From positions 11,257,145-11,321,144 of the forward strand of contig NC_088654.1 in assembly GCF_964019385.1 (NCBI RefSeq): 64,000 nt of DNA, given 5' to 3'. Both the position numbers and the translations under genes were made by a program. The notes beneath the pieces were generated by a model. The model was given only the letters and a program-made list of their open reading frames with translations, searched no databases and was not told the DNA's origin. The stretch comes from Sycon ciliatum. Taxonomy: Eukaryota; Porifera; Calcarea; Leucosolenida; Sycettidae. Positions 3,572-61,379 of this stretch are shown piece after piece. The number at the start of each line of letters is the position of its first letter. Position 1 is the stretch's first letter.

Positions 3572-6294
3572 TCCTGTCCTGTCCTGTCGACCCACTGCCT
3601 TAAAGGTTACGTGGTCCCATTGCGGGAGGAGGGAGAGGAGCAAACACACCGGTGCCGGGTCAGGTCCCTGGACTGCCGAAATCTCCGAGAGCAGTGCTGA
3701 CACATTAGTGGAAACTTGGCACGTTCATCCGTTGTTGGGCGGTTCTGGCGAGGTCTACAAGGAGCGGAAGCGGGCTGGCTAGCGATTGAGGCAGGCTGAC
3801 ACCTGTGCACAGCGAGTCCACCCCTGCTACGGTACCATCTCCCACAATCTGCGCATTGACATGCACCACGCTGCTGATGGACTGGCTTGCGACGCTCCGC
3901 TGTGCACTTGTGGCGCTTAAGATCACTTGGTCTAGAGCAGACCTTTCCACAGGTGGGGCACTCAACGGGGGCTGCTGCGGCCAGTTCCTTATCCTGGTCT
4001 TGGTATCTACATCGCCATTCCACGCGAGATGTGTTAGCGGTCTGGTACCAGTTCACAATTTGGTTATGTCGAAGATCGACCGACACACAGTCCTTCCACC
4101 GTTTCCTTGGTCCATGGGCAGGTCTGACAGGTGGGAGCTGGCCAAACAGAAGGCACTTCGGCATGCGGGTGTCATCCATGCGCGCCAGGTGACCTAGCCA
4201 CTCTAGCCGACGATGCCGAAGCTTACAGGTGATGGTCTCCGGATCGCCCCACATACGCAATAGTTCAGCATTGCTGATGTGGGCATCCCACATCTGCTGT
4301 CTCGACACACCAAGGATAGAGCGGACGCAACGCATATGGAAGGTGGACAGGCGTTGCAAGTCGCCCTGAAGGGGGACCCAGCACTCAGAACCGTATAGTA
4401 GTAAGGACATGACACACGCGTTGAAAACACACCTCTTCAAGAACACAGGAAGCTGACCATTGGCAAATACAGGGCGCTGTAAAGCACCACAGGCCTTGGA
4501 GGCACTCGCAATGCGGGCGTTGACGTCCACTGCCGAACGGCTGTTGCTGGCGATAATGGAACCCAGATACCTGAATTCAGCCACATTATTGATCTCAACA
4601 TCCGCCAGCGTGAGTGGGACACAGTCTGCATCTTGGATGTTGCTGCCGCACACCATGAATTGGGTCTTGGTAGTGCTGACAGTTAGTCCAAAATCAGCAG
4701 CAGTCGCCTGGAATACAGAGAGTGCGAGCTGAGCACCGTCACGTGTAGTCGCTAACAAGGCTGAATCGTCGGCGAACTGACATTCCCCAAACTTGGTCGA
4801 TATCTTTCGCGTCCTCGGCTTGCCGAACAAATTTCCGTCAATGCAATAGCGAACCTCCATGCCGACACCAGGAACTGCCGACACTCTCCGGGACCAAACA
4901 GTGAAAACGGCCCACATGAATAGATTGAAAAGCACGGGGGCCATAGAGCACCCCTGCCTCAAGCCGTTGTTGATGTTGATGGGCTGAGTGTGTCCCTGGG
5001 ATGTGCGGATTGTGGCAGACATAGATGTGTGAAAGGACTTGATGACAGCGAGGAGGGTGTCCGGTACCCCAGCACAAGCAAGTACACGCCACATACACTC
5101 TCTGGGCACTGAATCGTAGGCCTTGCGCAAGTCGATGAAAACCATGTAGCCTTTCGTGTCATGCTCGAGAGATTTCTCCACAAGTTGGCGTACAGAGAAG
5201 ATCATGTCCGAGCACGAGCGCCCGCGCCTAAAACCACACTGCGAGTCTGGCAGCAGGGTCTCCGCTAGCCGCTGGAGACGTGTCTGTATGATGGCAGCCA
5301 GCACCTTCCCCACAACATCCAACAGAGCAATGCCACGCCAATTGTCACACAGTTGCAGGTCGCCTTTTTTGGGGATGGGTACGAGAGTAGCATCAACCCA
5401 TTCCTGCGGTACCTGTCCGGAGTTCCACACAGCACCAAACAGATCTAGCATCCTGTCCCGTAGAGGAAAACCACCGTACTTAACCAGCTCCGGCAAAATC
5501 CTGGATGCGCCAGCAGCCTTGCCAGGCTTCAGCTTATCGATTGCACGTCGCACTTCAGCCGACGTTGGGGGGTTAGCCAAATCATCAGCAACCGGGCAAT
5601 GTGGGAGAGAGCCCAGTACCGCAGGGACGAACGTAGATGGGATATTCAACACTGTGTCGAAATGACGACTCCACCGACCATCCTGTTCCTCCTGAGACTC
5701 ACACAAGTTACCATTTTCATCCTTGATAGCAGACACCCAGGTGCCCACCCGTCCACGACAGCACGCCTGCAAATCTCCTATACACTTCCAAACTGCCGCG
5801 CCGTCAAATCGGGACTCCGAGGCCTGCTGTGCCTTGTTCTTGATCCAATCCACCTTCGCTTGACGTACTGCAGAACGGGCAGCAGCACGGGCAGCCTTGA
5901 ACTTGGAATAGTGATCGTCACGGAGCCTACCATGTTGAACCCACACATTGTACATTGCATTGCGTTCGTCCAAGAGCGGTTGAATGACATCCTGGCTATC
6001 AGCAAACCAGTCTGACTGGCGTCTCTTTCGTGGACCCAAGTTATCCATAGCTGATGTAACAACAGCATCACGTACCGCAGTCCATTGGCTCTCAACACTG
6101 CCCTCCTCGGGCCACCGATCAGCGAGCTCTTTAGCAACATCCGACTGGTAGTGTTCGGCTGCAGACTGCTTTGACGGAAGATCAGGATTTTCGCCACGCA
6201 TCTTGGCAACATCAAATTGGAAAACCGGAGGGCTATGACGGGCAGCACGGCGGCGCACGGCCGGAGTATCCAGGTCGAAAGACATGGTAAGTAG

Positions 6295-6334
<40 letters not shown>

Positions 6335-6447
6335 AACACACACACACGCACACACATAATCACACACAAACAGACACACGCACACAATCACACACACTCA
6401 CACGCGCACACACACACTCACACGCACATACACAAACACACACACAA

Positions 6448-12170: not shown

Positions 12171-12577
12171 GGGGAAAGGTCAACTTCCGTCGCATCGAGG
12201 TCGTCCAGACAGCAAACAACAACATCATAGCAGAGTCTGGGAACCGTTCATCCGGGCCCGGAGGGGAGGGGGGGGGGGGAGCCGGGTCACTTGAAGCCTG
12301 TTCTATACCGTATAAGCATCAGTAGCCCAAGCCAGCTCCTGAAAGACGGTACGGCCCGGTTATTACCCTATGCCACGATTTGGATCAACTTAAAGTCTTT
12401 CCAAGCATTTCTGGGGGAGATGCAAAGCTGACTAGTCTAAAGTAGCACTGAAGCGTTCTGGAGCCCAAGCCCGGGTATGGTACGGTACGCAGGACCAGCC
12501 GCTGGAAGCAGTTTTTGATTGGTCCGGTAGTGCATGTATTGTGGCCTTTCATACTTTGCGTATCGAAATGGTGGGTA
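12171..12577. other. Non-coding, repeat-rich
   Basis: Contains a poly-G run (about 12264-12280) and diverged R2-type sequence on the minus strand. No gene seen. Confidence 0.5.
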
Positions 12578-12578
12578 C

Positions 12579-12616
12579 CAGGGAGTCGTAAAATACCGGT
12601 ATTTTACTACTCCCTG
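12579..12616. mobile_element. 38-bp palindromic mobile element, copy 1
   Basis: Half-site CAGGGAGTCGTAAAATACC is followed by its inverse with one mismatch. The flanks GTGGGTAC and GTGGATGC are similar at 6 of 8 positions, as expected for an aged 8-bp target duplication. Sister copies are at 47596-47633 and 57099-57135. Confidence 0.75.
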
Positions 12617-13660
12617 GTGGATGCATATGCCCTCCACAGTAGTAAACACATGTCGGTGACCAAAAGGTTGATCCGGTTATAAATTTTTGTTTTTGTTTTC
12701 AGCAAGCTGCCATAAAGCAGTTTTTATTGCTGTAATTACTTTGTTCTTGCCCTTACAAGAGGCAGTATTGTCTGCACCGTATTAAAAGGTCCGGTTATAA
12801 CCTCAGTCCTGACCAACCGGACCGGTTCCTGCGGACAATGCCGGACATGGTATGGTATGGTACCAGCGATGGAGTAGTGAAGCCCGGCAATACTGCACGT
12901 AGTACTGGCCCGGTGGTATCGGTGCGGTTGGTCAGCCTGGCCATGGCCAGACAAACTTGTTGGCCATCAATGATTGTATTAACTTCTTTTTTTTTAACTG
13001 TTCCAAAGCCATTTTTACGGGCGAACAAAACAAGACGTGGATATGTCAAAGAAGAAAGAAGAAAAAAGGCCCAACCCTGCCCTGCCAGTTATGAGGGCTT
13101 ACACGGGGGTCGCCATGGCAAATAATAAAAATAAAAATGCGCGCGTTCGGGCAATGATTGTATTAACTGCTGAGGAGGCCATGTGCGTACAGTACCCTCC
13201 ATACCATACGCAAACTGTACAAAAGGCTAGGTGTGTGGCCGGATCAATCAAAAACCGCTGCCCACCTCCGCTACAGGCTGGCTTTCGCCCTGCTGCGTTC
13301 CAGTGCCATGTGTCTGCGTGGGGCTCGCCGAGTTTGGCAGCCTCCACTGGATGGCTGTGCCTCCCTGGCTGTCGTGGAGGCTAAGGTGTCCCGTTGACCC
13401 TTGGCCCGTGATTGTGCGGACTATGCCATACTTCTCTTGCTCTCTGATCACGTGTGACGTCATCATTATGTGACTTTGTTTTTCAATCCTCCGCCATCAT
13501 GCAAATTGTGTTTTGTTCGCCCATAAAAGAGGCTTTAATAAAATAAAAAATAATAAAAAATAATAATAAAAAATAATAAAAATCCGCTTCCACTGGTCCT
13601 GTAAAAAAAAAGTAAAGTTCGCACGTCCGCGTTACAACCGGCTATACACAATTGCATTGA
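12617..13660. other. Repeat-rich non-coding stretch
   Basis: Diverged R2 copies (about 12790-12940 and 13150-13280) and an AT-rich AATAAAAAATAAT tract (about 13535-13585). No exon recognised. Confidence 0.5.
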
Positions 13661-16985: not shown

Positions 16986-36144
<19,159 letters not shown>

Positions 36145-37077: not shown

Positions 37078-37313
37078 GTACATTTGCATCAATGGATCAC
37101 ATGTTGTCATCCATGTTGCTGGCCACTGTCCACATGCCATTATTTACACTTCCTTTTTTTATCGTGAACATTTTTACTAAAAACGCAGTCACATGACAAC
37201 GATGACGTCATGAAACCATGTTTGGCTCCAACTCCCCTGAATCCCTGCATCTATGGGTCACATGATGTCGGCCATGTTGGTTCCACTGTCCGCATGCCAT
37301 GATCACTTTCTAC

Positions 37314-37333
37314 CAGGAGTCTACGACTCCCTG
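37314..37333. mobile_element. Deleted copy (20 bp) of the palindromic element with 8-bp duplication
   Basis: CAGGAGTCTACGACTCCCTG retains only the outer parts of the palindrome. CTTTCTAC flanks it on both sides (37306-37313, 37334-37341). The next tandem unit carries a single CTTTCTAC (37467-37474), that is, an empty site. Confidence 0.8.
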
Positions 37334-38000
37334 CTTTCTACCCCAAATGCAGTCACATGACAAAGATGACATGCAACCATGTTGGTTCCAACTCCACTGA
37401 ACTCCGTGCATCTATGGGTCACATGATGTCGGCCATGTTGCTTCCACTGTCCGCATGCCATGATCACTTTCTACACACTTGGCGGGCACATGACGAAGAT
37501 GACTGTGATGCCGCTATAAAGAGTATTGTACAATGCAGGCTAGGCTGGCTACTATCATGGCTACCGAACACAGCGATACTAGTGCCAGTAGTGGACAGCA
37601 GTCAGACTCACAGATACACTCGTACCTCGCTTATCCGGGCGTCCTGGACCGCCCGAGACTTTGAACAGGCTCGTAGCTCAATAGGAGACACTTGGTCCGA
37701 AGATTGTCCAGTTTTACTTTTTCTTCACCTTCCTACATGTGTACTGAATGAAATGCTCTGCTTCGTCCAGGGATGTCCCTGGAACAAAACTGGAGCATTG
37801 GGGAAGTTCTACTGTACTAGCCTTGAATTCAACTATTCAGTTTCAAAAGCTATTGCGGGTTGCGAAATTTACGTCAAATTTGTTACAAAGAGGATGAAAT
37901 TCCAAAGATGTCCATGTTTTTCTTTTTTTATGATCAAGTAACAGTTTTCCTCTCCACGCTCTGTTACCATGGTTACATCACTACCTGTAGCCTACTACCA

Positions 38001-47358: not shown

Positions 47359-47590
47359 GTTCCAGAACTCGCCTGCAAGAAGATAGTGGTGAAGAAAGAC
47401 GACAGGAGCTCGACAAGCCATGGGGCCAACATGTTCTTGCCAGTCACCCTGGATCCACGCTCAGCTATGGGCAAAGTGCATTCTCTGCAGTTGCAGTACT
47501 GTAATAGGGAGAGAGTCTCTGATCGAGCCTGTGGCAAACTGCGCGAGGCGATTGAGATACAATGTACGTGATACTAAGCCCAATGTCAAC
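47359..47590. other. Downstream flank of the kinase ORF
   Basis: A further short frame (47386-47571) has no recognisable product. No nearby AATAAA except within R1 at about 47946. Confidence 0.4.
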
Positions 47591-47595
47591 ATAAG

Positions 47596-47633
47596 CAGGG
47601 AGTCGTAAAATACCGGTATTTTACGACTCCCTG
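47596..47633. mobile_element. 38-bp perfect palindromic element with 8-bp target duplication
   Basis: CAGGGAGTCGTAAAATACC followed by its exact inverse. AACATAAG occurs directly on both sides (47588-47595 and 47634-47641). There is no interior. CAGGG ends plus an 8-bp duplication fit hAT-type termini. Confidence 0.9.
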
Positions 47634-47845
47634 AACATAAGCATATGTGTGGGTTTCTTATGACAGAACCTGTTTTTTCTGAGCTTGTCCTTGCTGCTAC
47701 TTTTTTTGTACATCAATATCACTGATTATAATCATGAGGCGGGTCACACAAATCCATTCTGTTCCTGTCGCATCCCTGGTGATAATGGTTAGGCATGGGA
47801 AGTGTGGGATCTCACAGTTGTCTGCTTTTCTCACACATCGTGTCG

Positions 47846-50111: not shown

Positions 50112-51740
50112 ATTATATATTTATTACAACATCTCAAGACTCGGTGGAAACACCGGCCAATGTTAAAGAGAGTGGGTGATTGCCAACCACGGCGATAAAT
50201 AAAAGTAAGGGGAGGGAAAAAGAAAGAGTAGCAAAATGAACAGCAACAACTCCGTAAAGAAAGAGAAAGATAATGTCAAATAAAAACAGTGAAAAACACA
50301 GAGACGCAAAGGACATGTGGATAATGAGCTATGCATGTCGTAGTAAATAAGGGGCGGCACGGATCTTAAACAGGCGGAGTGAGGTCAGGTCCTTAACTTC
50401 TCTGGGTAGAGTGAGCCAAACAGAATAAGCAATAAAGAGAGGGGAGCGCAAAAGAGTGGATGAGTTACACTTAGGGAGTAAGAGTGAGTTTCTAGTTCTT
50501 AGAGAAGAGAACCAATTAAAACACATGAGATGAGGTGGGCACAACTCAAGCTTAATAGAATGGACAAGAGAAGCCAGGTGTGCACTGCGTCCATGTGATA
50601 ACGGGGTTGTGTGAGCGATTTTATAAAGGGCGGATGATGAGAGCATGCGGGGTTGACGGAGGAGAATTTTAAGGATTTTCTTGTGATGTATTTCAAGCTT
50701 TGCAGCAGCGGAAGAGGATAACCCAACCCAAGACGTATCTGCATAATGAAATATTGGGCGAAGGTAGGCGAAATAAAAAAGAAGCTTGCAAGAAAGTGGG
50801 AGGTAGGAGCAGTGGGGGGAGAGAATTCCTAAGGATTTACTTGATTTTTTACAGATATATTCGATGTGAGGTACCCAAGAGAGTGCAGAGTCAATCACAA
50901 TGCCAAGGTGTTTGTGAGAAGACACTATGTCAATTGGATTTGGAAAGTTGGCATGGATGAGGGTTGTGAACTCCGGCTGGGGCGGGAAGAGCATGATCTT
51001 TGTTTTTGATAGATTTGGGGACAACCTCCAGGACGACATCCAGGAAAGAACTTCCTGAATGCCAGCACGCAAGTTGTTTTTCAGGCCAGTGAGGGAAGCT
51101 GATGAGGTGAGAAGGGTCGTGTCGTCAGCAAACAGAGACGTTCCAGGGAAGACTGCAGGTAAGTCGTTTACGTAAATTATAAATAGTAGGGGACCAAGAA
51201 TTGATCCTTGAGGAACGCCCGACAATACTGGCTCTGCAGCCGAGGATGTGCCAAGCACAGTTACGTACTGATAACGCCCAGAGAGATAAGATTTCAGCCA
51301 GGAGAGTGGCTGTTTGCGTACCCTGAATGCATGCTCGAGCTTTGCCAAAAGTCCTCGATGCCAGACGGTATCAAAAGCCTTGGCCAAGTCAAAGAAGCAA
51401 ATGCCAGCAAGCGCTCTGTTATCCCTATGCTGGCACACCTGCTGCACGATGCGGGTCAGTTGAAGAGAGGTGGAGTCGCCTTTACGAAACCCAGATTGTG
51501 CGGGATAATGAGGAGTAAAGAAACAGGTCGATAATTATTGGGGAGGGAGGGGTCGCCGGATTTATACAGAGGCACGACTGAAGCCAGTTTGAACGCTGAG
51601 GGCACTACACCAGTCCGGAGAGAAGCACAGAATAAAACGGCAAGTGAATACGCCAGAATATCAGCACATTCCTTCAAAATGGATCCTGGAATTTCCCTCA
51701 CTGCCAGTTGCTTTCGTAGCATCAGCTCATCTCTCCCGTA
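50112..51740 (-). pseudogene. LINE B, reverse transcriptase with internal deletion
   Basis: The N-terminal part (51722-51525) ends NNYRPVSLL. The next residues in another frame are AQSGFRKGDSTSLQLTRIVQ, then a long open frame (51447-50329) with FFDLAKAFDTVWHRGLL, GVPQGSILGPLLFIIYVNDL and FADDTTLL. About 35-40 residues between YRPVSLL and AQSGFRKG are missing, causing the frameshift. The 3' UTR ends in an AT-rich TAATAAATATATAATA tail at about 50112. 5'-truncated at about 51740. Active-site residues are intact. Confidence 0.85.
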
Positions 51741-53671: not shown

Positions 53672-53859
53672 GTTGGTTGGCAGCTAGCTCTTGGAGGTGG
53701 CAAGAGTAGATAAGCAGTGTATCTGCTCTTGGTGGCGGGTATGTGCTGTTGCTTGGCTATCAACCCAGTCACAGTAATCCTCCCTACAGTGTGTACAGTG
53801 TGTACAGTGTGCCGTCACTTGCCAGTGCACTAGTGAAGGCGTGGACGGTCCCGGCGAAC

Positions 53860-55455
53860 ATGGCTGAGAAGAGAAAGCTAAGGCGATATACCATTGCGGA
53901 GAAATGCGCCATCCTTCAGGAGGTCGACGCGGGAGCCAAACGTAAAGACGTTGAAGAGAAGCACGGTATACACAAAAGCACGTTGGCAAGGTTAATCCTG
54001 GATCGCGAGCGTATCGCAAATAGCTCGGCCAAATCAACAGTTCAAGGTTTACAGTCAAAACTCACCGTTCGGCAACCGAGATTCTGCGAGATGGACGCCA
54101 TCATACTGGAATGGCTTCAGCAGGAAATTTGCCAATCTGCGACGACGACAACGAAAGTCCTTTACGGGTCTGACCTGCGGGAAAAAGCTCAGTACATATA
54201 ACGAGCGCTGGCTTCGCGTGGAATCAATCTGTACAAAGACGAGAAGCTTAACATGAAATACTGGGTTAGACGCTTTAGGGAACGGTATGGCATATCCGCC
54301 GGCAGAGTGAGTGTTGATGAGAGTACTGCTGGTAGTGCTACGGCATGTGAATCTCCAGGAAAAAAGGAGACACCCATTGAGCAGATTGAGAAGGAGTTTG
54401 ACGAGAATGACATTTTTAACGCATGCAAAACTGGAATGCAATGGCGAATGACTACTGAAACTGCATTCCTGGATGAAAGGCGGAAGCGGAATGCAGATAT
54501 GATTGGAGAACGATTAATTGTTCTTGGTAGTGCGAGTGCTGCGGGGGAAAAGCTCCCTCTCTTCGTCGTCGGCAGTTGTAACCTGCCAAATTGCTGTGAA
54601 GGAGACGTGAACAACTCGGTCACATATCGAATGCACAAACTGGCTTGGATAACAGGCGAGGTGTTCGAGACTTGGCTGTGGACGCTGGACAATCAGATGA
54701 AAGCTTCTGGCAGGACCATTGCCATAGTACTGGACAAGTATTCAGCTTACCCCGATATCGACGGTTTGAGCAACGTGAAAATATTCTTTCTTCCACCGAA
54801 GGCCTCGCGTACGAATCAACCACTGTGTTCTGGAATCATCACCGACCTCAAGAGGTCCTACCGTTATCTGCTGTTGAAGCAATGCCTTGCGTGTCACGAG
54901 TCTGGTGTACCGTTCAGCTTGGACTTGCTCCAGGCGCTGGAGTGGCTGAGTAGCTCGTGGAATTCCCTCAAGGTGGCCACCATTGTCCGTGGCTTCCGTG
55001 CTGCTGGCTTTTGCCATTCTTCTACCCATAGGCCACAGAAACCTGCAGCAAGTAGTATTGCAGCTAGCAGTAGCGACTCCACGCTTGATGGAGCAGAGGG
55101 GGCATTGTGGAAGCAGGCACAAGACACACATCTGGTAAAGAGTGGAGCAACATTTCAGGACTACGTCAACATCGACAATAAGCTGCTGGCCAATCCATCT
55201 TCGTTTGAAGCCACAGTTGACATGATCCTAGGTCGATCTCCAGGCCATGATGAACTGGAAGGTGGCAACAATGAGGGAGAGGGTGCTGCTATGCATACAC
55301 CTGAAGAGCAGCCTACACCATCATTCAAGGAAGCCCTGAATAGTCTGAGTGCTGCTCTAACCTATATGGAGTCCATACCCGGAACTGTCGAGCATTGCCT
55401 TGCTGTGGCACGTGCGCAGGATACGTGTGTCGATGCTCAACTAAATTTGCAATAG
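53860..55455 (+). pseudogene. Degenerate pogo/Tigger-type DDE transposase
   Basis: One frame from ATG 53860 spans 532 codons, broken only by TAA at 54199-54201. The N-terminus RRYTIAEKCAILQEVDAG...KHGIHKSTLARLI is a CENP-B/psq-type helix-turn-helix. The DDE part is recognisable (ERLIVLGSASAAGEKLPLFV, TYRMHKLAWITGEVFETWL, LSNVKIFFLPPKASRTNQPL) but the catalytic positions are changed. The usual NADETG is NACKTG, the second motif is VLDKYSAYP (Asp kept) and the third reads QPLCSG where PLDQG is expected. So two of three acids are lost. A serine-rich and acidic C-terminus follows. It lies within the presumed intron between 53671 and 55998. A domesticated function cannot be excluded, but the stop argues against it. 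Confidence 0.85.
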
Positions 55456-56535: not shown

Positions 56536-57098
56536 ATCACTGTTTCTCTTCTTTAAAAACGTTTATGGCCTGAGAGTGTCAGGACCGAACGACCACACGG
56601 CACGAGGACAACTATTGACACATATACATTTCACTTGATCGAGCAATAAGTCAGTCGAAGACCGCCAATTATTTACAGCATGAAAACGGCGTATATCAAA
56701 AAAAATGACAGCGTATGCAGTAAATCGCACATAGCGCATATTATAGCGTATACAATGCAGTAAACATCAGCGGTACGGAGGAGTCGAGATACAACGTCGA
56801 AACGAAGCCAATGTCATAAGCGAGAAGGCCTTTCACACTTGAGAACTTGTGGTTTTGTAACAGTTGTACATTTGTTCGACTTTTGTTTTGTTGCCCCTCT
56901 TTCCGTCTGTATGTGCACTGCAGTAAAAAACAACAACAAAAAAAGCTGACTACAGAACTTCACAAGGGACAAACCTGTGAAACCGAGAAAAGAGGAAACT
57001 TCTCGCAATTAGGTCAAGTGAAGAAATTAGTTGGGGCTTACCTAGTACCTGTGTGTTGATTTCAACACGGTCATGGTGCGCTGCTGTGTTGTACGAGT
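56536..57098. other. Non-coding stretch
   Basis: No exon recognised. Confidence 0.4.
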
Positions 57099-57135
57099 CA
57101 GGGAGTCGTAAAATACCGGTATTTTACGACTCCTG
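57099..57135. mobile_element. Palindromic mobile element with 8-bp target duplication, copy 3
   Basis: 37 bp, identical to the 47596 copy except one C missing in the right half. GTACGAGT occurs on both sides (57091-57098, 57136-57143). Confidence 0.9.
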
Positions 57136-57508
57136 GTACGAGTTCGAGTTTCGCACTTTTAGATCTGCAGGTCATTCTTTTTAGACGTTCTCGCGTGATT
57201 ATTCTCTCCACATAATGCATAAAAATCACATAGGTGCAGGTATGCAGCTCACAATGTTCTCCTTGAATTGCAATGGACAAAAAGATCCACGAACTATGCC
57301 CAGCCCTCCTCCAATGTCACAGGAACTGTCGACTGTCGTACTATGATCTAGCAGATGTGCCCAGCTGCCCAGGCAAGCTTTGCGTTCTATCTTGACTTGT
57401 TGTCGTATGGGAGCTGTGTCGAGTGCCGCTGAGTGTGTGTATGTGCGTTGTGTTGAAATCGCTGGTCTCCAACAGCATTTGTCCCGAAGGGTCGGATCAC
57501 CATCACAG

Positions 57509-59925: not shown

Positions 59926-61379
59926 CGCGTGGCCCACGGCTCACGAGATTTCAGAGTCATGTCACCTTCGTCAAGTGCGGTTGAGTGGGTTGTTACTCGC
60001 CTTGAACGCCCGTTGGTCTGGAAGTCATCCCACTTGTGTTGTTACTGCGCTCAAGAACACGCTGGGACAGTGGGAGTGTTGTAGGCCTACGAACCGGGAC
60101 TTTCCCTGACCATGTAGGTCGAAGACCAGTGAAATGATGATGAAATCACATTCTTTATGACGTAAGAAATCTCTCATGCAGTTCACGCGACAAGTGCGTG
60201 CAGTCAGTGCTACTCGCGTGCCAGTCAACACAGGGACCGAGCTAGCCGCTTTTGTCGAGCATCGACATGAAAACAAGGGACTTTTACTGTTGGACTATGT
60301 TCGGGATTGCAGGAGGTAAGTGTGAAAGACGAATAACTCTCCATGCTGTATGGGGCATATTTCAACGGCTTGCTGCCATTGCAACACTCCTAGGACAGTT
60401 TGTTGGGGTACTCACAGTGCCTGCTCTAGACATTCAACACAGCCCGGTCAGAGTGTACCTGGCGCATGCAGGCCAGCCGGGTCAAGCCGGGTCAGATCAT
60501 CCGGCAGAAAAACAACCAAAAAGCCTGCTCAAAACGCAGGAAACAGAAAGGCGAATTTATTACCGGAAATCGGAAATTTTAGAGAACAAGGCGAACTATC
60601 AAAGTCCGCAAACGTAAAAGGTAAACGACATTACGTGAAGAATGCAAAGCAGTTCCATTGGATTCTGATTTAACAATTTGAAAAAAAGGAATTCTGTTTT
60701 CTAATTATTGCTAGTAGCAGGACGAACGACCAAATCCATCGCCGCTCATCTTCCTTTGGAAATGCGTCTTGCACAAAGCGCATGACATGGATAGACTAGC
60801 ATGGTCGTAGTCCAGCCAGGGTCGACCTTTCTTCCAAGAGTCTTGGAAAGGTGAGATCTTTTTCTCTTCGCTGCGGGCTCCATCATCCAAATCACCAGTC
60901 GGCTGAAAAATTGCAACTGTGTCAAAGTAACGCTTTTGACTGCCTGCCCCATCGACTTTGTATGTCCTGACTTCCTGCTCGCCGCTAACTGGCCAGATCG
61001 TGCTCGAACCAGTTGACGTGACCGCAGTTGACCCTAGCCGAGTTTCTGTCGCTTGTAGACTGTAGTGTGTACGGTTGCGCTAGACTTGCAAGAGATGGGG
61101 TCCGCTAGTCGTAAAATACCGGAATTTTATGAATCCATTGTCAGTTTGAGACATTTTTCAGCCGGGTCAGACTGGACCCGGTGTTATCTGTTCAGCCAGG
61201 TCGTGCAGTTCCCCAGCCGGGCGCGTGACCCGGCTGACCCGGCTCTCCAGCAGGCCCTGACTCAGCAGTTCAAGCAGGAAATGAAGCTCATCTTACCTCT
61301 GCCATCATGGTCTGTTCCGAGTAGCGTTCCAGGCACTTTCACGATCGTTAGCCGCGTATCGTGATGCAGGAAGCGTCAT
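59926..61379. other. Spacer of the inverted duplication
   Basis: Contains GCCGGGTCA/TGACCCGGC motifs at about 60478 and 61158-61240, and a degenerate piece of the palindromic element (AGTCGTAAAATACCGG, 61102). No recognised gene. Confidence 0.45.

What the first reader, a model, noticed from the sequence alone, without database searches (positions are those of the whole stretch)
47588..47641. A mobile palindrome of only 38 bp: two hAT-like ends with no interior
CAGGGAGTCGTAAAATACC is followed immediately by its exact inverse and flanked by a perfect 8-bp direct repeat (AACATAAG). A second copy (57099-57135) has a different perfect 8-bp repeat (GTACGAGT). A third (12579-12616) has a degraded one. 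Different duplications at each site indicate real transposition, not segmental duplication. An 8-bp duplication and CAGGG termini fit hAT. An element made only of joined termini would be among the smallest mobile units.
Basis: partly seen in the sequence, partly recalled or inferred. Interest (0 to 1): 0.9.

Follow-up and report, generated by a model that had tools for sequence, protein, structure and literature searches.

The report
Palindromic scars left by P-type transposons
The 38-base palindrome is most likely not a tiny jumping gene but the repair scar left where a much larger P-element-like transposon was cut out; more than a thousand scar-like sites of this kind in the same genome keep a natural record of how broken DNA ends were rejoined.

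Summary
In detail: 47596-47633 is a perfect 38-bp palindrome between perfect 8-bp direct repeats; 57099-57135 has another perfect pair, 12579-12616 a degraded one. I add a 20-bp relative with perfect repeats (37314-37333).

The interpretation changes. The same ends (32-bp TIRs, 8-bp duplications) bound elements of 2 kb and more. One (G000:C5:19783693-19790618) encodes an unbroken 1002-codon transposase of the P superfamily, not hAT. Drosophila P transposase leaves 17-nt 3' tails of TIR sequence at the donor site, and end joining yields TSD-TIR piece-TIR piece-TSD junctions. The 38-mer fits that: two 21-nt TIR ends overlapping at self-complementary CCGG.

Genome-wide there are 435 exact 38-mers and 884 shorter relatives (22-34 bp). 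The 50 listed of these hold 30 different cores, the commonest being microhomology joins; 29 of 50 keep perfect 8-bp repeats. A second TIR family has its own 38-mers. Full TIR ends number 173. A mobile 38-mer does not explain this diversity; excision scars do. The mechanism is known from flies; the scale and an apparently longer (~20-21 nt) tail are new here. No locus was found with element in one copy and scar in another.

The parts
47588..47595 (.). left 8-bp target-site duplication AACATAAG
47596..47633 (.). 38-bp palindromic scar: two 21-nt P-type TIR ends overlapping at CCGG
   Evidence: matches the 32-bp TIRs of the long elements
47634..47641 (.). right 8-bp target-site duplication AACATAAG
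57091..57098 (.). left TSD GTACGAGT of second scar
57099..57135 (.). 37-bp scar (one base lost from the right arm)
57136..57143 (.). right TSD GTACGAGT of second scar
12571..12578 (.). left flank GTGGGTAC, degraded TSD (6 of 8)
12579..12616 (.). 38-bp scar with one mismatch
12617..12624 (.). right flank GTGGATGC, degraded TSD (6 of 8)
37306..37313 (.). left TSD CTTTCTAC of a 20-bp scar
37314..37333 (.). 20-bp scar CAGGAGTCTACGACTCCCTG, a different junction of the same TIR ends
37334..37341 (.). right TSD CTTTCTAC of the 20-bp scar
61102..61139 (.). old decayed scar-like copy (8 mismatches to the 38-mer), no recognisable TSD

Best explanation
The palindromes are excision footprints of a P-superfamily DNA transposon. 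An element of 2 kb or more inserted and made an 8-bp target duplication (shown: elements with the same ends and TSDs). Later transposase cut it out with a long stagger inside the TIR, leaving on each side of the donor break a 3' single strand reading TSD-CAGGGAGTCGTAAAATACCGG (inferred; for Drosophila P, 17-nt tails are established). The host joined the two identical tails at whatever short complementarity they offer: CCGG with CCGG gives exactly 38 bp (435 exact copies, the largest class counted), TAC with GTA gives 27 bp, CG with CG gives 28 bp, and other joins carry fillers or trimmed arms (junctions shown; pathway, polymerase-theta-type or other end joining, inferred). The scar is then inert, apart from copies carried along when a surrounding repeat amplifies.
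For: Long elements with 32-bp TIRs and perfect TSDs: GTGCTGAG, GTGTTCGC, CTAATCCA, GTTCGAAT, GGTTCAAC, AACACAAT, AGGAGAAT. L091 transposase: PF21787 5.8e-19, PF21788 2.9e-5, PF21789 0.01; PDB 6p5a 1.9e-6 with the D, D and E of the fly core aligned to D, D and E; three unbroken full-length copies at 99-100%. 884 short products of 22-34 bp with both outer 10 bases exact, reversed control 0; the 50 listed hold 30 distinct cores. Of these 50, 29 have perfect and 6 more 7/8 TSDs (40, 9, one seen in L063 without a TSD). Filler-free family-A joins: 17 of 21 show >=2 bp microhomology; random joins of tails up to 21 nt that would pass the same search pattern give 20.7% (P 6e-9; a looser null gave 16.9%). 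The 27-mer (TAC/GTA) is the second strongest microhomology join of a 21-nt tail and the commonest listed short product, 8 of 50. Only 219 of 2176 19-mer ends continue to TIR position 22. A second TIR family (B) makes its own 38-mer through the same CCGG: 10 of 16 fetched B sites are exactly that 38-mer and 10 of 16 (partly other ones) have perfect TSDs (sites chosen because both 18-nt arms lay close together). The 35 full-TIR pairs found in the 100 rows listed are all 2080 bp or longer. Published Drosophila P junctions have the same layout (passages of PMC2895639).
Against: No locus was seen with a long element in one copy and a scar in a paralogue: for a duplicated site in an array at C1:51.87-52.50 Mb the 40 scored hits (of 149 candidates) include empty and filled sites but none with the flanks 38 bp apart. 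A second such test (C7 trio) did not complete. The 38-mer is the largest class, which a mobile 38-mer would also predict. Fly P cuts at 17 nt; the 38-mer needs about 19-21 nt of TIR per side, so either this enzyme cuts deeper or bases were copied back before joining. 18 of 50 exact sites and 21 of 50 short sites lack a perfect TSD. One 56-bp product with a perfect TSD (L001) keeps about 40 nt of one end, beyond any 21-nt tail. 30 of the 100 full-TIR ends listed have no exact partner and most of these were not measured, so intermediate deletions are not excluded.
Confidence: 0.9

Rival explanations
1. One reading: a mobile hAT-like (or other) element consisting only of two joined ends, amplified as a 38-bp unit from one founder by transposase acting in trans.
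For: 435 identical copies, in the 50 read mostly at sites with different perfect TSDs (32 of 50); the 38-mer is the largest class.
Against: 884 shorter matches, 30 cores in the 50 listed, 29 of these 50 with perfect TSDs, would need many separately mobile units. Two diverged TIR families show the same 38-bp layout. Fly P transposase binds 10-bp sites lying 9 and 21 bp internal to its 31-bp TIR (passages of PMC7776569), which a 38-mer cannot hold. Fillers lie between TSD and arm in two copies (L044 GTAC, L045 CATGC). The transposase is P-type, no hAT domain.
Confidence: 0.05
2. In-place internal deletion of long copies unconnected with excision (replication slippage or cruciform cutting between the TIRs), leaving joined TIR tips.
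For: Products sit in TSDs and are made of TIR tips; palindromic ends can promote deletion (recalled). L001 keeps about 40 nt of one end.
Against: The 35 full-TIR pairs listed are all >=2080 bp (30 listed ends unpaired and mostly unmeasured); retention mostly stops near position 21 rather than at the full 32-bp TIR; seven one-ended 18-bp tip duplications exist, at long elements and at scars, as expected from a staggered cut. Hard to separate from aborted gap repair after excision, which belongs to the main explanation.
Confidence: 0.04
3. Passive spread: most 38-mers are copies of few scars carried inside other repeats.
For: 26 of 45 listed matches to a 181-bp repeat have the length expected with the 38-mer; a 33-bp product occurs in 6 of 50 listed short sites with like flanks.
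Against: Of 50 distinct exact sites only 2 (L074, L079) are in the 181-bp repeat; the others have different near flanks and TSDs.
Confidence: 0.01

Closest known systems
Drosophila melanogaster P-element excision junctions (P{wa} repair products, PMC2895639; passages and parts of Tables 1-3 seen)
   Same: 8-bp TSD, up to 17 nt of TIR from each end, joined at short or long microhomology or with insertions, TSD again
P-element superfamily transposons (Drosophila P, PMC7776569 passages; zebrafish Pdre2/THAP9, PMC10983969 passages; Galileo, PMC4168063 listing and abstract start)
   Same: transposase core with RNase H halves and GTP-binding insertion, D-D-E, 8-bp TSD; long TIR as in fly P (31 bp there, 32 here)
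   Different: no THAP domain found; C2H2-like fingers instead; an open frame on the other strand; TSD preference nTnnnnAn
hAT MITEs
   Same: 8-bp TSD, CAGGG-type termini
   Different: transposase of the partner element is not hAT; the product is a scar, not an element
Transposon footprints in genome comparisons (e.g. rice, PMC4423477, search listing and abstract start only)
   Same: excision leaves altered bases at the TSD (recalled)
   Different: to my recollection the TIR is not normally retained there; here both TIR tips remain as a palindrome

Membership tests
P-element transposon superfamily (for the parent element) | transposase with TNP-like RNase H core and GTP-binding insertion domain | tested here: met
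   PF21787 E 5.8e-19, PF21788 2.9e-5 (just at its cut-off), PF21789 0.01 (below its cut-off) on L091:1730-4735; 6p5a E 1.9e-6
P-element transposon superfamily (for the parent element) | catalytic D, D, E | tested here: met
   alignment to 6p5a puts D, D and E of the query on the chain's D230, D303, E531 (positions counted by hand on the alignment, their catalytic role recalled)
P-element transposon superfamily (for the parent element) | 8-bp TSD and ~31-bp perfect TIR as in fly P | tested here: met
   32-bp TIR and 8-bp TSDs (one pair read, L106/L107, has flanks that do not match)
P-element transposon superfamily (for the parent element) | N-terminal THAP domain (in fly P and THAP9; I do not treat it as required) | tested here: inconclusive
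   no THAP match in the 1002-codon frame or in four upstream and two reverse-strand frames of L091; short or spliced exons not excluded
P-type excision footprint | TIR tips from both ends between intact TSDs, element interior gone | tested here: met
   32 of 50 exact, 29 of 50 short and 10 of 16 B sites with perfect TSDs
P-type excision footprint | varied junctions with microhomology or filler | tested here: met
   30 cores in 50 listed; 17 of 21 filler-free family-A joins with >=2 bp microhomology
P-type excision footprint | same site seen with element and with scar | tested here: inconclusive
   0 scars among 40 scored hits at one duplicated site; a second site did not complete, others not tested
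P-type excision footprint | donor ends with long 3' TIR tails made by this transposase | not testable with these tools
   needs in vitro cleavage; indirect only: arms mostly stop at 20-21 nt
hAT superfamily / hAT MITE | hAT transposase in the autonomous partner | tested here: not met
   no hAT domain in the L091 frames scanned at E<=1
mobile TIR-only mini-element | one uniform unit with TSDs | tested here: not met
   many different units with TSDs

The most novel reading that the evidence does not exclude
The transposon's ends may be built to heal their own excision: both TIR families keep a self-complementary CCGG just where the cut tail seems to end (positions 18-21), so the two donor tails anneal to each other and close into one predictable 38-bp scar, limiting damage to the host. 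If so, this is a cut-and-paste element whose terminal sequence programs the repair product, with a cut 20-21 nt inside the TIR instead of 17. (Conservation of these positions could equally reflect transposase recognition.)
Probability: 0.15. Interest if true: 0.75.

Novelty: new member of a known kind. Interest (0 to 1): 0.5.

Why it matters
It removes a claimed 'smallest mobile element' and replaces it with something useful: a natural archive of probably about a thousand or more end-joining events at defined breaks in one genome. Because each scar starts from the same two tails, the junction spectrum can be read as a fossil assay of which joins this lineage prefers, and scar numbers against living copies bear on how often elements left their sites. 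Annotators should beware: such scars look exactly like ultra-short MITEs with perfect TSDs. I found no genome-wide catalogue of P-type scars in nine searches of the held library, judged by their listings; that is weak evidence, since most subscription papers are not held.

Tried and rejected
hAT origin: rejected on the transposase. Mobile 38-mer: rejected on junction diversity. My first idea of simple internal deletion at CCGG (note) was replaced by the P-type staggered cut after the copy-number ratio was seen; the P idea was noted before the transposase was seen. Candidate autonomous element L090 (C3, 4.9 kb) proved to be a 2.1-kb-type copy with an unrelated insert. Peptides of L034 and L090 gave no Pfam family above cut-off. 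The paralogue test at the C1 array gave no scar. The L074-type palindromes without TSD proved to be passengers of a 181-bp repeat. A search for the family PF12017 did not complete; the protein search served instead. The organism was not identified.

Rows dropped: L077 was merged with L074 in the TSD count. The microhomology test uses the 21 filler-free family-A joins of the 50 listed; the other 29 (fillers, family B and C-like ends, repeat-borne) are left out of it. On recheck I replaced my first random-join null (16.9%) by a stricter one (20.7%) and corrected the count of exact B 38-mers to 10 of 16.

Full report
What is in the window. The palindrome at 47596-47633 and its flanking AACATAAG repeats are exactly as described. 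The copy at 57099-57135 is 37 bp because the right arm lost a C, with perfect GTACGAGT repeats; 12579-12616 has one mismatch and flanks matching at 6 of 8. Chance is excluded (7 arm matches against 0.01 expected). Two further members are a decayed copy at 61102-61139 and a 20-bp version at 37314-37333, CAGGAGTCTACGACTCCCTG, between perfect CTTTCTAC repeats. That last one matters: the same ends, the same kind of 8-bp repeat, but a different and shorter core.

The genome. The window lies in a 538-Mb unnamed assembly. The 19-nt arm occurs 1091 + 1085 times, none for the reversed control; 435 sites are exact 38-mers. In 50 distinct exact sites (49 on C1 plus the window's, after merging L077 with L074), 32 have perfect 8-bp flanking repeats and 10 have 7 of 8; swapped pairings give 7/8 in 0.16% and 8/8 never. 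The 32 perfect repeats prefer T at position 2 (27 of 32) and A at position 7 (21 of 32). So insertions made most of the sites sampled, at scattered positions.

The parent element. Arms also occur as pairs kilobases apart: 35 pairs with full 32-bp TIRs could be read from the 100 rows listed and all are 2080-8737 bp; 30 listed ends have no exact partner there and most were not measured. Those read carry the TIR CAGGGAGTCGTAAAATACCGGGAGGCGACACG and mostly 8-bp TSDs (the L106/L107 pair did not match, and L034 and the C1:76197061 copy carry an extra TIR tip on one side). The 2.1-2.5 kb copies translated (L031, L032, L034) show no recognisable transposase. The 6.9-kb copy on C5 (L091) has an unbroken 1002-codon frame with P-superfamily domains that aligns to the Drosophila P transposase structure 6p5a with the three catalytic acids matched. 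Three full-length copies are 99-100% identical in protein, one of them inside a second TIR pair on C5 (ends at 12814525 and 12824075; protein at 12818599-12821604), which suggests recent activity. The other matches of the 48 listed are fragments or more diverged, among them long open frames at 39-54%.

Why the palindrome is read as a scar. From the review PMC7776569 (passages): P transposase cuts the 5' strand 17 nt inside the TIR, leaving 17-nt 3' extensions, and binds 10-bp sites 9 and 21 bp internal to the 31-bp TIR. From PMC2895639 (passages with parts of Tables 1-3): the donor site after P excision keeps 17-nt 3' tails, and end joining in flies lacking Rad51 gives TSD, TIR piece, microhomology or insertion, TIR piece, TSD (some joins lose the TIR altogether). 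The 38-mer is what two tails of about 21 nt would give when their tips CCGG anneal: 21 + 21 - 4 = 38. I noted this hypothesis before seeing the transposase.

The test. If scars are end-joining products, other joins must exist. A pattern requiring both outer 10 bases and a 2-14 bp core found 884 sites, reversed control 0. The 50 listed have 30 different cores. The commonest are a 27-mer (8 of 50; 3-bp TAC/GTA microhomology) and a 28-mer (6 of 50; CG); 32- and 30-mers at TA and AT also occur. For a 21-nt tail the 38-mer is the strongest microhomology join (4 bp) and the 27-mer the second. Among the 21 filler-free joins of this TIR family, 17 show at least 2 bp of microhomology; random joins that would pass the same pattern give 20.7% (P 6e-9; sites treated as independent, which their differing flanks support). 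Many others carry fillers or belong to related TIR families. Forty sites were fetched for and nine; the last lies in L063: 29 of 50 have perfect and 6 more 7/8 TSDs. Six of the 50 appear to be one repeat-borne event (L118, L123, L143, L144, L146, L191); without them the figures are 24 and 5 of 44. So many different cores sit in their own insertion sites, which a single mobile unit cannot do.

A second family repeats the result. CAGGGAGTCGTCAAATAC ends occur 395 + 418 times. One pair, 2090 bp apart, has TSD GTTTACGC and TIRs that match family A through position 23 except at position 12 and then differ. Of 16 short B sites fetched (chosen because both arms lay close together), 10 are the exact B 38-mer CAGGGAGTCGTCAAATACCGGTATTTGACGACTCCCTG and 6 have other cores (37-60 bp); 10 of 16 have perfect and 1 has 7/8 TSDs.

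Size of the cut. Of 2176 19-mer ends only 219 continue to position 22 and 173 to position 32; the longest arm in the listed short products of this family is 20 nt. This points to a tail of about 20-21 nt, but for the 38-mer itself the arms must end at CCGG by construction, so the inference is moderate, and one 56-bp product (L001, perfect TSD ACCATAAT) keeps about 40 nt of one end, as partial copying before joining would give. One-sided products fit too: seven ends carry an extra tandem 18-bp TIR tip, at long elements (L034, C1:76199601) as well as scars (L067, L073), as expected if one end was cut and both tails were kept on rejoining.

What does not fit or was not shown. No element/scar pair at one site was found (40 scored hits; the C7 test stayed unanswered). 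18 of 50 exact sites lack a perfect repeat; two have fillers between TSD and arm (L044, L045), and one (L022) and one B site (L164) have the flank repeated in inverted orientation over 13 and 11 bp, which I cannot explain beyond fold-back copying. In a 181-bp repeat, 26 of 45 listed matches have the length expected with a 38-mer inside, so copy number is not the number of excisions.

Verdict. The reading as a 38-bp hAT-like mobile unit is very probably wrong; the palindromes are most likely excision scars of P-type transposons. The mechanism is known from Drosophila experiments; the natural accumulation of more than a thousand scar-like sites, led by one self-complementary join, is the new part. 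P membership of the parent rests on the transposase core, TIR and TSD; a THAP domain was not found.

Noticed in passing
L074, L077, L079, L172-L181 (C1:25996264-25996444 and others): A ~181-bp interspersed repeat ending ...AATCCGGAAAGGCCTA carries the 38-mer (26 of 45 listed matches have exactly the length with it) without TSD; one old scar copied by another repeat family.
   Followed up: partly
L022:1488-1551; L164: Scar flanked by inverted instead of direct repeats of the flank (13 and 11 bp), as if the join copied back into the left flank.
   Followed up: no
L034, L067, L073, C1:76199601-76199636 and three more: Tandem 18-bp duplication of the TIR tip on one end, at long elements and at scars; possibly a one-ended cut and rejoin.
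   Followed up: partly
L091:4645-5904:- and homologous parts of L031, L032, L034, L090: A second, apparently intron-bearing open frame on the opposite strand of the P-type element (420 codons in L091) with no Pfam match above cut-off; the transposase-less copies read keep parts of it.
   Followed up: partly
window 37181-37474: The 20-bp scar sits at the boundary of a ~134-bp tandem duplication whose other copy also ends at CTTTCTAC, suggesting that repair of this excision also duplicated neighbouring DNA.
   Followed up: no
C1:51871308-52497231: A segmentally duplicated array in which the same insertion site occurs empty, with ~2.15 kb and with 8-9 kb between the flanks.
   Followed up: partly
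L001 (C1:57067-57122 region): A 56-bp product with perfect TSD ACCATAAT that keeps about 40 nt of one end and a doubled outer tip of the other.
   Followed up: no
window 3607-6387 (-), 50329-51534 (-), 53710-55455 (+), 34366-36081: Frames that by eye look like non-LTR reverse transcriptases (first two) and a pogo/Tigger-like transposase (third, holds a stop), none tested, and a 52-bp satellite of 33 copies.
   Followed up: no
C5:3313812-3316709, C8:24816176-24818923, C3:27708035-27710839 and others: Several long open P-type transposase frames only 39-54% identical to L091, i.e. further P lineages whose own TIRs and scars were not examined.
   Followed up: no
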